From positions 1-10,064 of the forward strand of contig JAEWSK010000310.1 of assembly GCA_023398345.1 (NCBI GenBank): a DNA stretch of 10,064 bases, written 5' to 3'. This stretch comes from Armatimonadota bacterium (lineage in GTDB: Bacteria > Armatimonadota > UBA5829). Shown here piece after piece: positions 1,699 through 10,064 of the stretch (position 1 is the first letter of the stretch; the number at the start of each line of letters is the position of its first letter). The notes beneath the pieces were generated by a model. That model ran no database searches, was not told the DNA's origin, and worked only from the letters and a program-made list of their open reading frames with translations. A program made the position numbers and the translations under genes.

Positions 1699-1727
1699 TT
1701 GACATGGAATTACGCGCACATTATACT
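1699..1727 (+). promoter_or_regulatory. Sigma-70-type promoter of the riboswitch-exporter transcript
   Basis: The -35 box TTGACA (1699-1704) is a perfect consensus match. The -10 box TATACT (1722-1727) differs from TATAAT at one position. The spacer is exactly 17 bases. The predicted transcription start, about 1733-1735, falls at the first bases of the aptamer-like RNA. That agreement supports both calls. Confidence 0.88.
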
Positions 1728-1732
1728 CATAT

Positions 1733-1814
1733 CAGATCAGGCGGCTCCGATTTTTAATGGGGTGCGGCTGGGCCGTAATTAAAGGCAGCAGGTTTTATTA
1801 GCCCTGTGGGACTG
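1733..1814 (+). promoter_or_regulatory. Candidate NiCo (czcD-motif) riboswitch aptamer
   Basis: The RNA follows the NiCo family plan as I remember it. A short P1 is formed by CAG (1733-1735) with CUG (1812-1814). The segment CAGGC (1738-1742) comes next. P2 is CUCC/GGGG (1745-1748 with 1759-1762). The joining segment is GCGGCUGG (1764-1771). P3 is GCC/GGC (1772-1774 with 1784-1786). P4 is CAGG/CCUG (1789-1792 with 1803-1806 by position), and then the diagnostic UGGGACUG (1807-1814). Known members sense Ni2+/Co2+ and switch on metal exporters, especially CDF (czcD) genes, which is the downstream gene here. The metal-ligand guanines in the junctions appear present. P1 is only about 3 bp. Class assignment comes from recalled consensus, not a covariance-model search. 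Confidence 0.8.
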
Positions 1815-1836
1815 TAAAATGTCCCATGGGGCTTTT
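1801..1836 (+). terminator. Intrinsic terminator forming the riboswitch expression platform
   Basis: Bases 1801-1812 (GCCCTGTGGGAC) pair with 1821-1832 (GTCCCATGGGGC) in a 12-bp stem, with two G-U wobbles at the fifth and sixth pairs, an 8-base loop and TTTT at 1833-1836. The 5' arm is the same sequence that closes the aptamer (P4 3' strand and the UGGGAC junction), so aptamer and terminator are mutually exclusive. Inference: metal binding stabilises the aptamer and prevents termination, an ON switch for efflux. The U-tract is short, so termination may be partial. Confidence 0.85.
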
Positions 1837-1844
1837 GTGACTCT

Positions 1845-1850
1845 GGAGGG
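1845..1850 (+). promoter_or_regulatory. Shine-Dalgarno site that sets the exporter start at GTG 1855
   Basis: GGAGGG lies 4 bases before an in-frame GTG (1855-1857) and just beyond the terminator. The only upstream ATG (1819) sits in the terminator loop with no ribosome binding site, so this site decides the start. Confidence 0.8.
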
Positions 1851-1854
1851 CGAA

Positions 1855-2826
1855 GTGTCCAATTTTGCCGAGCGTAAATCGTCTGCAGCAATACTATCGG
1901 TAATATCGAATGCCACGCTGATCGTGCTCAAAATCGTGGTGGGCATTGCGATTCAGTCTGTGTCGGTCATATCGGAAGCAATCCACTCCGGCGTGGACAT
2001 GCTCGCCGCGATGATCGCGCTATTTGCCGTCAAATCATCAGAAAAACCCGCAGATGATGAGCATCCATTTGGCCACGGAAAGATCGAAAACATCTCCGGC
2101 ACCATAGAAGCAATTCTAATATTCGGAGCCGCCGCATGGATAATATACGAAGCCGTCCAAAAGCTTATCCATCCAAAACCCATTGCCGATGCATCGTGGG
2201 GCATCGGCGTAATGCTTCTATCGGCGCTCGCGAACATATTTGTCTCAAGAGTGCTTTTTAAAGTCGGCAATGAGACAGACTCGGCCGCTCTCAAGGCCGA
2301 CGGTTGGCACTTGATGACTGACGTCTATACTTCCGGCGGCGTAATGACGGGTCTGGGGATAATCTGGATCACAGAGCGCATCCTACCCGGCTACAACATT
2401 CAATGGATTGACCCAGTAGCTGCAATTGCAGTCGCATTACTTATTCTCAGGGCTGCATACAAACTGACTGTTGAATCCGGCCGCGATCTTTTAGATGCGA
2501 GTCTTCCTCAAGATGAAGAAGATTGGATACGGACTTACGTTAGCAAAATGGCCGGAACAGTTAGAGGATTTCATCGTCTGCGCACTAGGAAATCAGGCGC
2601 ACATCGATTTGTGCAGTTCCATCTTTTGGTGCATGCCGATATGTCAGTTGACGAATCGCACAAACTCCATGACGCGATAGTCGCCGCGATAAAAGAGCGC
2701 TTCCCGGCAAGCACAGTTACAATTCATGTAGAGCCATGCGATCTTTCATGCGGCACAGACTGCATTGACGGATGCTTTATGAGCGACGAAGACCGCAGCG
2801 CGCTGGTGAATGCGAGTCAAAAGTAA
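1855..2826 (+). CDS. Cation diffusion facilitator (CDF) family divalent metal exporter
   Basis: The 323-residue protein is an inner-membrane metal/proton antiporter with about six hydrophobic segments in the first 200 residues and a cytoplasmic C-terminal domain. The transport site is clear: His44 and Asp48 (HSGVD, TM2) and His152 and Asp156 (HLMTD, TM5), matching the HxxxD pairs of Zn/Co/Ni-type CDFs and the D/H sites of YiiP. The loop motif HPFGHGKIE after TM2 is typical. The C-terminal ferredoxin-like domain includes GAHRFVQFHLLVH and HVEPC. It is followed by an evenly spaced Cys295, Cys299, Cys303 and Cys307 (CX3CX3CX3C), which is unusual and could bind metal. The start is taken as GTG 1855 because of its Shine-Dalgarno site and because ATG 1819 lies inside the leader terminator. 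The riboswitch-like leader suggests Ni2+/Co2+ as the physiological signal; substrate range cannot be read from the sequence alone. Confidence 0.93.
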   Translation: MSNFAERKSSAAILSVISNATLIVLKIVVGIAIQSVSVISEAIHSGVDMLAAMIALFAVKSSEKPADDEHPFGHGKIENISGTIEAILIFGAAAWIIYEAVQKLIHPKPIADASWGIGVMLLSALANIFVSRVLFKVGNETDSAALKADGWHLMTDVYTSGGVMTGLGIIWITERILPGYNIQWIDPVAAIAVALLILRAAYKLTVESGRDLLDASLPQDEEDWIRTYVSKMAGTVRGFHRLRTRKSGAHRFVQFHLLVHADMSVDESHKLHDAIVAAIKERFPASTVTIHVEPCDLSCGTDCIDGCFMSDEDRSALVNASQK

Positions 2827-2905: not shown

Positions 2906-2930
2906 AGCCCCTGCATTATACAGGGGCTTT
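2906..2930 (+). terminator. Leader hairpin, possible attenuator or weak terminator
   Basis: A perfect 8-bp stem, AGCCCCTG (2906-2913) with CAGGGGCT (2921-2928), has a 7-base loop and only two Ts beyond the stem (2929-2930) before a G. It lies between the promoter and the rmlD ribosome binding site, so it would be transcribed in the leader. It might also end the exporter transcript, which stops 80 bases upstream. The short T-run makes efficient termination doubtful; a 5'-end stabilising hairpin is an alternative. Confidence 0.5.
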
Positions 2931-2940
2931 GCATTATGTA

Positions 2941-8972: not shown

Positions 8973-10064
8973 TTACTCTCCGCAGCCGCAACTGCAGCAA
9001 CAGCAGCAAGATTCCATTTTCTCAAGAGCAAGTGTTACTGTCGAAGCGTCGCATACTTCGCTTGGCCCAAAATACTGAATCGGGCCGGGGAAGATGTATT
9101 CGTCGTTAATTGCCCATGCGTCGCGATTGACGGCAAAATACTGGAACGGCTTGTCATTGAGATCCACTAGCGCCTTCTTTATAACCGGCGTGGGCTTACC
9201 CTTGCGGATCTCCATGTTGAGCATCATCGTCACTGGAGTGCCACCTGCCAGCCACATATCTGAAGGCTTTGTAAGATTCTGCACGTTCACCGTATAGCCC
9301 GTCAGACCTGCTCGGACGAGCTGTGCGGCAGCGTAGCCGAGCGAATAGGTGTAGTCAGCATCAAAGTTCGACGGTGCAGCGCAGCGACCTTCGTAGCCAA
9401 AGAAATGTCCCAACGAACTGAATTTCGCCTGCGTCTCGCCGTGCTGCTTCATCGTTCTTATCTTGTCGGAAACCAAATCCATCAATAGACGCTCGGTTTC
9501 GACCTGCGAAAGAGGCACGTTGCCGTGGCTGTCGCGCTTAAGAAGGACTTGCTGAGCATCAGGCGGCAGAGAGCTATATACGCGCGCGCTGTGGTCGGTA
9601 AGCTGATTTACCATATACTGCACCCGCTCGGAATGATCTTCCAGTCCGTGTATATACTCTTCATCTTTGCCGAGTATATTGCTGACCTCATCGATCATTG
9701 TCTTAATATCTGGAATGAACTCAGGCAAACCTTCGGGGACAACCAAAATGCCATAGTTCTTGCCGGCAGCGGCACGCTTGCAAACGACATCAGTAATATA
9801 GTCAACAATCTCGCTAAGCGTCGTGCCCTTGGCCTGAATCTCTTCAGAAATCAGAGCGATATTTGGATGCGTCTGCAGTGCGCACTCGAGTGCGACGTGG
9901 CTTGCGGCCCGTCCCATTAGTCGTATAAAGTGCCAATATTTAACGGCCGATGTCGCATCACGGGCGATATTTCCGATAAGCTCGGAATAGGTCTTTGCGG
10001 CGGTATCGAAGCCAAATGATGCCTCAATTCGCTCGTTTTTCATATCGCCGTCAATGGTTTTAGG
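8973..10064 (-). CDS. pfp: Pyrophosphate-dependent 6-phosphofructokinase, long type (5'-truncated)
   Basis: The coding frame runs through the right edge of the window; 363 residues are visible. The first codons read PKTIDGDMKN, the catalytic PFK motif with the proton-abstracting Asp, so the ATG at 10043 is internal. The N-terminal PPi-binding region, perhaps 170-210 residues, is outside. SFGFDTAAK, FIRLMGRAASHVALE (the fructose-6-phosphate-binding MGR motif), LVVPEGLPEFIP and FFGYEGRCAAPSNFD resemble long-type and plant-beta PFPs. These enzymes interconvert fructose 6-phosphate plus PPi with fructose 1,6-bisphosphate plus phosphate, reversibly, in glycolysis and gluconeogenesis. The C-terminus is odd: seven cysteines in nine residues (CCCCCSCGC) just before the stop, encoded by TGC-rich codons. 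I know no such tail as a family feature. A strong terminator follows. Confidence 0.94.
   Translation of the reverse strand, partial: PKTIDGDMKNERIEASFGFDTAAKTYSELIGNIARDATSAVKYWHFIRLMGRAASHVALECALQTHPNIALISEEIQAKGTTLSEIVDYITDVVCKRAAAGKNYGILVVPEGLPEFIPDIKTMIDEVSNILGKDEEYIHGLEDHSERVQYMVNQLTDHSARVYSSLPPDAQQVLLKRDSHGNVPLSQVETERLLMDLVSDKIRTMKQHGETQAKFSSLGHFFGYEGRCAAPSNFDADYTYSLGYAAAQLVRAGLTGYTVNVQNLTKPSDMWLAGGTPVTMMLNMEIRKGKPTPVIKKALVDLNDKPFQYFAVNRDAWAINDEYIFPGPIQYFGPSEVCDASTVTLALEKMESCCCCCSCGCGE
8982..9008 (-). repeat. Imperfect TGC trinucleotide run encoding the Cys-rich tail
   Basis: Nine consecutive codons (TGC, TGT, AGT, GGC) form an imperfect TGC-type microsatellite at the 3' end of pfp. 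Replication slippage could have produced or could vary it. It stays in frame and ends two codons before the stop codon. Confidence 0.6.

What the first reader, a model, noticed from the sequence alone, without database searches (positions are those of the whole stretch)
1699..1857. Complete Ni/Co-sensing riboswitch unit in front of a CDF exporter
Four independent elements line up. A TTGACA-17-TATACT promoter has its start site at the first aptamer base. An 82-base RNA matches the NiCo (czcD) layout, including the UGGGACUG end. A 12-bp terminator has a 5' arm identical to the aptamer's closing segment. A strong ribosome site and the exporter gene follow. The mutually exclusive folds predict an ON switch. 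The aptamer shows a short P1 and a 3-bp P3, so it may be a divergent member of the class.
Basis: partly seen in the sequence, partly recalled or inferred. Interest (0 to 1): 0.75.

Follow-up and report, generated by a model that had tools for sequence, protein, structure and literature searches.

The report
NiCo metal riboswitch before metal exporter
This stretch encodes an RNA metal sensor of an already described class, the NiCo (czcD) riboswitch, placed in front of a metal-pump gene in what looks like an Armatimonadota bacterium; it is a sound but ordinary new member of a known kind.

Summary
Confirmed and ordinary. Window 1723-1816 (+) matches Rfam NiCo RF02683 at 54.8 bits (cut-off 37). 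A TTGACA-17-TATACT promoter (1699-1727) leads into it. A 13-bp hairpin (1800-1812/1821-1833) re-uses the 3' strand of P4, the GGG junction and P1 as its 5' arm. A Shine-Dalgarno site and a GTG (1855) then open a CDF exporter gene. Across 44 NiCo loci (window included), 37 have such an overlapping terminator, against 29 of 880 shuffled flanks; aptamer helices show strong covariation. Best reading: the published mechanism. Without metal the terminator forms; with metal the aptamer holds the shared strand and the exporter is transcribed. 'Divergent member' is not supported: 42 of 62 over-cut-off matches score lower, and short P1 or P3 is common. Caveats: the cognate ion of the class is disputed (Co/Ni or Fe(II)), and the U-tract here is short. 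Extras: the host looks Armatimonadota; RNAs below Rfam's cut-off precede CDF genes in a Synergistaceae genome and in four genomes reached from a Victivallis-labelled one; the exporter has a Cys-rich tail and an HDHD metal site.

The parts
1699..1727 (+). sigma-70-type promoter TTGACA-17-TATACT
   Evidence: consensus scan, 11 of 12
1734..1734 (+). predicted transcription start (approximate)
   Evidence: 7 nt downstream of the -10 hexamer; inference
1723..1816 (+). Rfam NiCo (RF02683) match; the transcribed aptamer is about 1733-1815
   Evidence: 54.8 bits, E 1.4e-10; 64.6 bits with a model built here, of which it is a training member
1733..1735 (+). P1 5' strand, pairs with 1812-1814; C1738 pairs with G1810
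   Evidence: Rfam structure projected on the window
1740..1769 (+). P2 hairpin (9 of 10 pairs standard)
   Evidence: covariation
1770..1772 (+). GGG, probable counterpart of metal-coordinating G45-G47 of the crystallised Erysipelotrichaceae RNA
   Evidence: invariant in 36 of 36; coordination read in PMC7689651 passages; residue mapping by motif is inference
1772..1786 (+). P3 hairpin (4 of 5 pairs standard)
1788..1807 (+). P4 hairpin (5 of 6 pairs standard); its 3' strand is shared with the terminator
1808..1810 (+). GGG of GGGAC, probably holding the counterparts of metal-coordinating G87/G88
   Evidence: invariant in 36 of 36; mapping by motif is inference
1800..1833 (+). intrinsic terminator hairpin, 13 pairs, 8-nt loop, followed by UUUG
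   Evidence: overlapping terminators in 37 of 44 NiCo loci
1845..1850 (+). Shine-Dalgarno GGAGGG
   Evidence: sequence
1855..2826 (+). CDF-family cation exporter, 323 aa, probable GTG start; Cation_efflux + ZT_dimer; HDHD metal site; Cys-rich C-terminal tail

Best explanation
A NiCo (czcD)-class riboswitch acting as a transcriptional ON switch for a CDF metal exporter. RNA polymerase starts at or just before P1 and makes the four-helix aptamer first. If enough divalent transition metal is present, ions bound by the two GGG junction strands (1770-1772, 1808-1810) hold P4 and P1, so the shared strand 1800-1812 is not free and polymerase reads on into the exporter gene. Without metal, strand 1800-1812 pairs with 1821-1833, forming a terminator that stops transcription ahead of the ribosome site. 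Shown here: anatomy, class membership, covariation and conserved overlap. Inferred from the published class: metal binding and read-through. Not shown: which ion.
For: Rfam NiCo, 54.8 bits over a cut-off of 37. A 36-sequence alignment not fitted to the structure gives 88.3% of cells paired (shuffled 71.2), 21 of 26 pairs with changes on both sides, covariation 0.531 (shuffled 0.217; slid structures at most 0.118). The GGG/GGGAC residues are invariant in 36 of 36. The overlapping terminator is in 37 of 44 loci against 29 of 880 shuffled flanks. Folding: RNA 1733-1840 prefers the terminator (-42.8) over the enforced aptamer (-22.4 kcal/mol); P4 pairs with probability 0.72-0.90 at 1809-1815 and P1 0.47 at 1815, before the terminator's 3' arm is made; terminator pairs reach 1.0 once 1833 is made. 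Exporter: Cation_efflux, ZT_dimer. Two relatives show traces of the leader in over-extended predicted N-termini: P0001 (96% identical; its 3' end only) and P0006 (73%). The published mechanism is the same: metal prevents an overlapping terminator (PMC7917058, PMC7689651, passages).
Against: The U-tract is short and the tool's terminator scan listed none. The window's own terminator overlap is reached by 14 of 300 shuffles, so it leans on the comparative evidence. 4 of 26 consensus pairs are mismatched in the window. The aptamer segment 1733-1815 alone is not unusually stable by computed energy (z +0.63; 148 of 200 shuffles fold at least as well). In the growing transcript the metal-free P4 is not stable throughout: its probability falls to 0.50 at 1818 and 0.06 at 1821 before rising again to 0.79 at 1824. 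Nothing here measures metal binding, start site or read-through.
Confidence: 0.92

Rival explanations
1. Same RNA and same switch, but the physiological ligand is Fe(II) (or a mix of transition metals) rather than Ni/Co, and the exporter is an iron exporter.
For: Reviews report Fe(II) responses and call the cognate metal unclear (PMC7689651 passages), advise caution (PMC9971707 passages), or list the class under Fe2+ (PMC11477304 passage, which cites an iron-riboswitch reappraisal that I could not open). The exporter's best solved relative is FieF, deposited as a ferrous-iron efflux pump.
Against: The exporter's four metal-site positions read HDHD, not FieF's DDHD; that this favours Zn/Co/Ni over Fe is recalled, not tested. 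It scores 190 bits against the FieF equivalog cut-off of 420.
Confidence: 0.4
2. The RNA works mainly, or also, on translation: structure in the leader hides the ribosome site.
For: Short U-tract after the hairpin. In computed folds of 1733-1860, 1733-1880 and 1733-1900 part of the Shine-Dalgarno site is paired: G1845 with an upstream stretch, G1849-G1850 with downstream bases.
Against: The terminator hairpin itself ends 11 nt before the site, and the downstream pairing of G1849-G1850 does not use switch bases, so it would not depend on metal (inspection). 37 of 44 loci have a T-rich stretch right after the same hairpin.
Confidence: 0.08
3. A chance or degenerate resemblance with no regulatory role.
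For: Individual elements, such as the promoter and the terminator overlap, are each reachable by chance.
Against: E 1.4e-10 over the whole Rfam library, invariant junction residues, an exporter directly downstream, and leader traces in relatives.
Confidence: 0.01

Closest known systems
NiCo / czcD riboswitch (Rfam RF02683; Furukawa et al. 2015, recalled and cited in papers whose passages I read, not opened)
   Same: Four-helix aptamer with invariant GGG and GGGAC junctions, overlapping intrinsic terminator, metal exporter downstream.
   Different: Host appears to be Armatimonadota. P1 is 3 contiguous pairs and P3 is short, both within the range seen in 36 members.
FieF/YiiP-type CDF exporters
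   Same: Cation_efflux plus ZT_dimer; best solved relatives by sequence.
   Different: HDHD instead of DDHD at the aligned metal site, an added Cys-rich tail (EPCDLSCGTDCIDGC), below the FieF equivalog cut-offs.
yybP-ykoY (Mn) riboswitch
   Same: Metal-sensing leader RNA of metal-homeostasis genes (recalled).
   Different: No match in the window up to E 1; only NiCo is listed.

Membership tests
NiCo riboswitch (RF02683) | Covariance-model score above the curated gathering score | tested here: met
   54.8 bits against 37, positions 1-96 of 96
NiCo riboswitch (RF02683) | Conserved junction guanines that bind metal (G45-G47, G87, G88 in the crystallised RNA) | tested here: met
   GGG at 1770-1772 and GGGAC at 1808-1812, invariant in 36 of 36; mapping to crystal numbering by motif (inference), coordination from PMC7689651 passages
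NiCo riboswitch (RF02683) | Four paired helices P1-P4 supported by covariation | tested here: met
   21 of 26 pairs with both-side changes; 22 of 26 pairs standard in the window
NiCo riboswitch (RF02683) | Expression platform: terminator overlapping the aptamer's 3' end | tested here: met
   1800-1833; 37 of 44 loci against 29 of 880 shuffled flanks; the window's U-tract is short
NiCo riboswitch (RF02683) | Heavy-metal exporter directly downstream | tested here: met
   CDF gene 1855-2826; CDF match downstream in 28 of 44 loci, one of them a broken frame
NiCo riboswitch (RF02683) | Cooperative binding of Co2+/Ni2+ and metal-dependent read-through | not testable with these tools
   needs in-line probing and transcription assays
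CDF transporter family | Cation_efflux and ZT_dimer domains; TIGR01297 | tested here: met
   178.2 and 80 bits; 249.6 against 82.35
FieF equivalog | Score above the NCBIfam equivalog cut-off | tested here: not met
   190.1 against 420 and 194.6 against 447
FieF equivalog | DDHD transport-site residues | tested here: not met
   HDHD at aligned positions 44, 48, 152, 156; that these are the site is recalled from FieF/YiiP
DmeF Co/Ni CDF equivalog | Score above the NCBIfam cut-off | tested here: not met
   62.7 against 250

The most novel reading that the evidence does not exclude
Outside the Bacillota, NiCo RNAs, some with minimal P1 stems, repeatedly accompany a distinct clade of HDHD CDF exporters with a four-Cys C-terminal tail. 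RNA and tail might form a two-step control, the RNA inducing and the tail gating, tuned to one ion that may not be Ni or Co.
Probability: 0.08. Interest if true: 0.4.

Novelty: new member of a known kind. Interest (0 to 1): 0.17.

Why it matters
It adds a well-supported NiCo riboswitch from a probable Armatimonadota genome. It also points to likely members below Rfam's cut-off ahead of CDF genes (L005, L013, L014, L015, L056). Such natural variants could help settle which metal the class senses, a question that a review still called open (PMC7689651 passages).

Tried and rejected
Divergent-member idea: rejected, since 42 of the 62 over-cut-off matches score below the window and short P1/P3 is common. 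Link between the Cys tail and the RNA: not strict. Four-Cys tails also occur in CDFs without a detected NiCo RNA (L001/L058, which are one place, L057 and L059). Of the 17 CDFs found downstream among the loci (phylum of a Lachnoclostridium-labelled genome), 15 lack the tail and two (L038, L044) have it; elsewhere L005, L047 and L048 lack it. Fixed promoter position for the class: only partly seen. With 8 or more of 12 matches, the window, L039, L042 and L043 have a -10 box ending 8 nt before the anchor G; the other 32 of 36 rows do not. Plasmid leaders similar at DNA level: none up to E 0.1. Relatives in viral contigs: none confirmed by that scan, which finds close relatives only. Own-genome searches: not possible, no genome held.

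Faults of my own. My first platform script read minus-strand loci in the wrong orientation; its counts are discarded and replaced. Alignment A2 has the same fault and was not used. The terminator column used wrong partners; one search repeats it correctly.

Rows dropped before counts: A3 uses 36 of the 44 loci. L016 and L054 were left out as likely false hits; L021, L023, L031, L032, L033 and L040 were left out by hand to thin the set, without a test. The 44 loci are the 42 returned with a locus, plus the window and L056; lower-ranked matches without a locus were not examined.

Full report
What is there. The leader between the upstream methyltransferase/MTHFR gene and the CDF gene holds the window's only Rfam match: NiCo RF02683, 1723-1816 (+), 54.8 bits against a cut-off of 37, E 1.4e-10, full model length. 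A lax scan of both strands of the whole window to E 1 lists only that match, with one lower-scoring overlap of the same clan left out. Projected on the window, the consensus structure has 26 pairs, of which 22 are standard: P1 has 3 contiguous pairs plus C1738-G1810, P2 has 9 of 10, P3 has 4 of 5 (3 contiguous), P4 has 5 of 6.

Surroundings. A TTGACA-17-TATACT promoter ends at 1727. If initiation is at the usual distance, RNA begins at about 1734, inside P1, so the first positions of the Rfam match are promoter rather than RNA (inference). A 13-pair hairpin at 1800-1833 follows; its last pair is A1800-U1833, then UUUG. The tool's terminator scan does not list it, probably because the U-tract is short. 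GGAGGG at 1845-1850 precedes GTG 1855; part of it is paired in computed folds, with G1849-G1850 bound to downstream bases. The mechanical ORF start at ATG 1819 lies in the hairpin loop. The closest public protein, P0001 (96% identical), begins MSHGAFVTLEGEVSNF, which is the window's own translation of the hairpin's 3' arm and the ribosome site. So that relative probably carries the same leader end and is probably annotated with the wrong start.

Exporter. 323 aa, Cation_efflux and ZT_dimer, TIGR01297 CDF superfamily 249.6 bits, below the equivalog cut-offs for FieF, MntE and DmeF. Closest solved chains are FieF. Aligned with FieF, the transport-site residues are H44, D48, H152, D156 where FieF has D, D, H, D (which residues form the site is recalled). 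HDHD occurs in 24 of 27 NiCo-linked CDFs with all four columns (the window apart; L026 and L035 read NDDD, L050 HDDD) and in 120 of 120 of its closest listed homologues. Past the last domain match there is a tail EPCDLSCGTDCIDGC; at least 3 Cys occur there in 119 of the same 120.

Host. Among the 120 closest IleRS relatives listed, 16 show an organism name: 15 Armatimonadetes/Armatimonadota and one 'bacterium' (best, P0130, 80% identity). For the CDF, 9 of 120 show one: 5 Armatimonadetes/Armatimonadota, one 'bacterium', and one each of NC10, Methanothrix and Deltaproteobacteria. For the PFP gene, 16 of 120: 12 Armatimonad, 3 Acidobacteria/Acidobacteriota, one 'bacterium'. So Armatimonadota is likely, not proven; no whole genome is held.

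Comparison. NiCo matches over the cut-off: 55 of 299 genomes of the phylum of a Lachnoclostridium-labelled genome; 3 of 201 of the phylum of an Anaerolineales-labelled genome; 0 of 95 relatives of a Victivallis-labelled genome, though 4 had matches at E <= 0.001. These three searches used stricter filters that lose some weak matches, and the tool does not name the genomes or phyla. Three of the four sub-cut-off hits (L013, L014, L015; 29.8-33.5 bits), and L056 (31.7 bits), sit upstream of CDF genes 56-59% identical to the window's (L014's match covers 73 residues before its frame breaks). The fourth, L016, has no CDF gene downstream and looks false. L056 comes from a sample of 288 genomes of the phylum of G012, in which 6 held a CDF at 55-59% identity; two of those six (L055, which is the same place as L013, and L056) show the RNA, the other four (L057-L060) do not. 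A model built from 36 members (R1) was searched against 45 sources. It found the window and L056, both training members, L055 (the L013 place again), and L005, a Synergistaceae locus outside the training set, 36.1 bits, ahead of its CDF gene; Rfam gives that one 31.1 bits.

Covariation. On the MAFFT alignment A3 (36 of 44 loci, not fitted to the structure), 88.3% of 913 cells pair (shuffled 71.2), 21 of 26 pairs change on both sides (shuffled 15.5), and covariation is 0.531 (shuffled 0.217, 0 of 500 as high; structures slid by 1-3 columns at most 0.118). The structure came from the family consensus, so the slide control leans in its favour, and related sequences inflate the shuffle control. 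Outer P1 pairs hold in 19 of 36 and 30 of 36; the fourth and fifth P3 pairs in 28 of 35 and 18 of 31. The window's short P1 and P3 are therefore normal. It would rank 21st beside the 62 over-cut-off matches.

Switch. In 37 of 44 loci a hairpin with at least 6 pairs, dG of -13 or lower and a T-rich foot starts inside the aptamer's 3' end; the same scan on dinucleotide-shuffled flanks gives 29 of 880. For the window alone, shuffles reach it in 14 of 300. The seven without it are L016, L036, L040, L047, L048, L052 and L054; two of these (L016, L054) look like false hits. RNA 1733-1840 folds at -42.8 kcal/mol with the terminator and at -22.4 when the aptamer is enforced. At 1809-1815, before the terminator's 3' arm exists, P4 pairs with probability 0.72-0.90 and P1 reaches 0.47; P4 drops to 0.06 at 1821 and is back at 0.79 at 1824; terminator pairs are 1.0 from 1833 on. 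The aptamer segment alone is no more stable than shuffles (z +0.63), the segment with the terminator is (z -3.25). So the computed metal-free default is termination, and metal must hold the aptamer. The published mechanism is the same (PMC7917058 and PMC7689651, passages).

Second line of evidence from proteins. P0006 (73% identical exporter) has a 48-residue N-terminal stretch, most of it over-extension, whose residues are compatible, in one frame and in order, with three NiCo sequence islands. None of 2000 shuffles of it and none of 2891 interior 45-residue windows are. The pattern was set after seeing P0006, so this is supportive only; of the 28 of 120 homologues with 15 or more such residues it is the only one that matches, and most of the others are too short to hold the pattern.

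Ligand. Passages of PMC7689651 report four Co sites, coordination by conserved guanines, in vitro affinities for Co, Ni, Zn, Fe and Mn, and an unresolved cognate metal. A passage of PMC11477304 lists the class as an Fe2+ riboswitch. I could not open the primary papers. Sequence cannot decide this. No paper held contains both 'riboswitch' and 'Armatimonad' (with nickel added also found none); that library lacks most subscription journals.

Verdict. A new member of a known riboswitch class with its expected gene and platform; low surprise.

Noticed in passing
window 2731-2826 (+), end of the CDF gene: Cys-rich C-terminal tail EPCDLSCGTDCIDGC beyond the ZT_dimer domain, shared by 119 of 120 closest listed homologues (at least 3 Cys) and by CDFs in other lineages, with or without a NiCo RNA.
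   Followed up: partly
window 8973-10064 (-): C-terminal part of a pyrophosphate-dependent phosphofructokinase, cut by the window edge, ends in a poly-Cys tail (MESCCCCCSCGCGE). 36 of 120 listed homologues have at least 3 Cys in their last 14 residues. Function unknown.
   Followed up: partly
window 1819-1854 (+): The longest ORF start (ATG 1819) lies in the terminator loop; public protein P0001 begins with the same residues, and P0006's predicted N-terminus appears to be translated riboswitch. Such N-terminal over-predictions could be mined for hidden leaders.
   Followed up: yes
window 2906-2931 (+): GC-rich hairpin (AGCCCCTG...CAGGGGCT) then TT shortly after the CDF gene, a possible terminator closing a single-gene unit (seen, not scanned).
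   Followed up: no
L014: NiCo RNA below the cut-off ahead of a CDF gene whose frame breaks after about 78 codons in that assembly; left as it is.
   Followed up: no
L018, L020, L022, L024, L026, starting about 30 bases upstream of the P1 anchor G: These NiCo leaders share TTTGCACTGCAT (L022 with one base different) upstream and ACAGTACAAnCTG at P1, hinting at a conserved promoter or upstream element.
   Followed up: no
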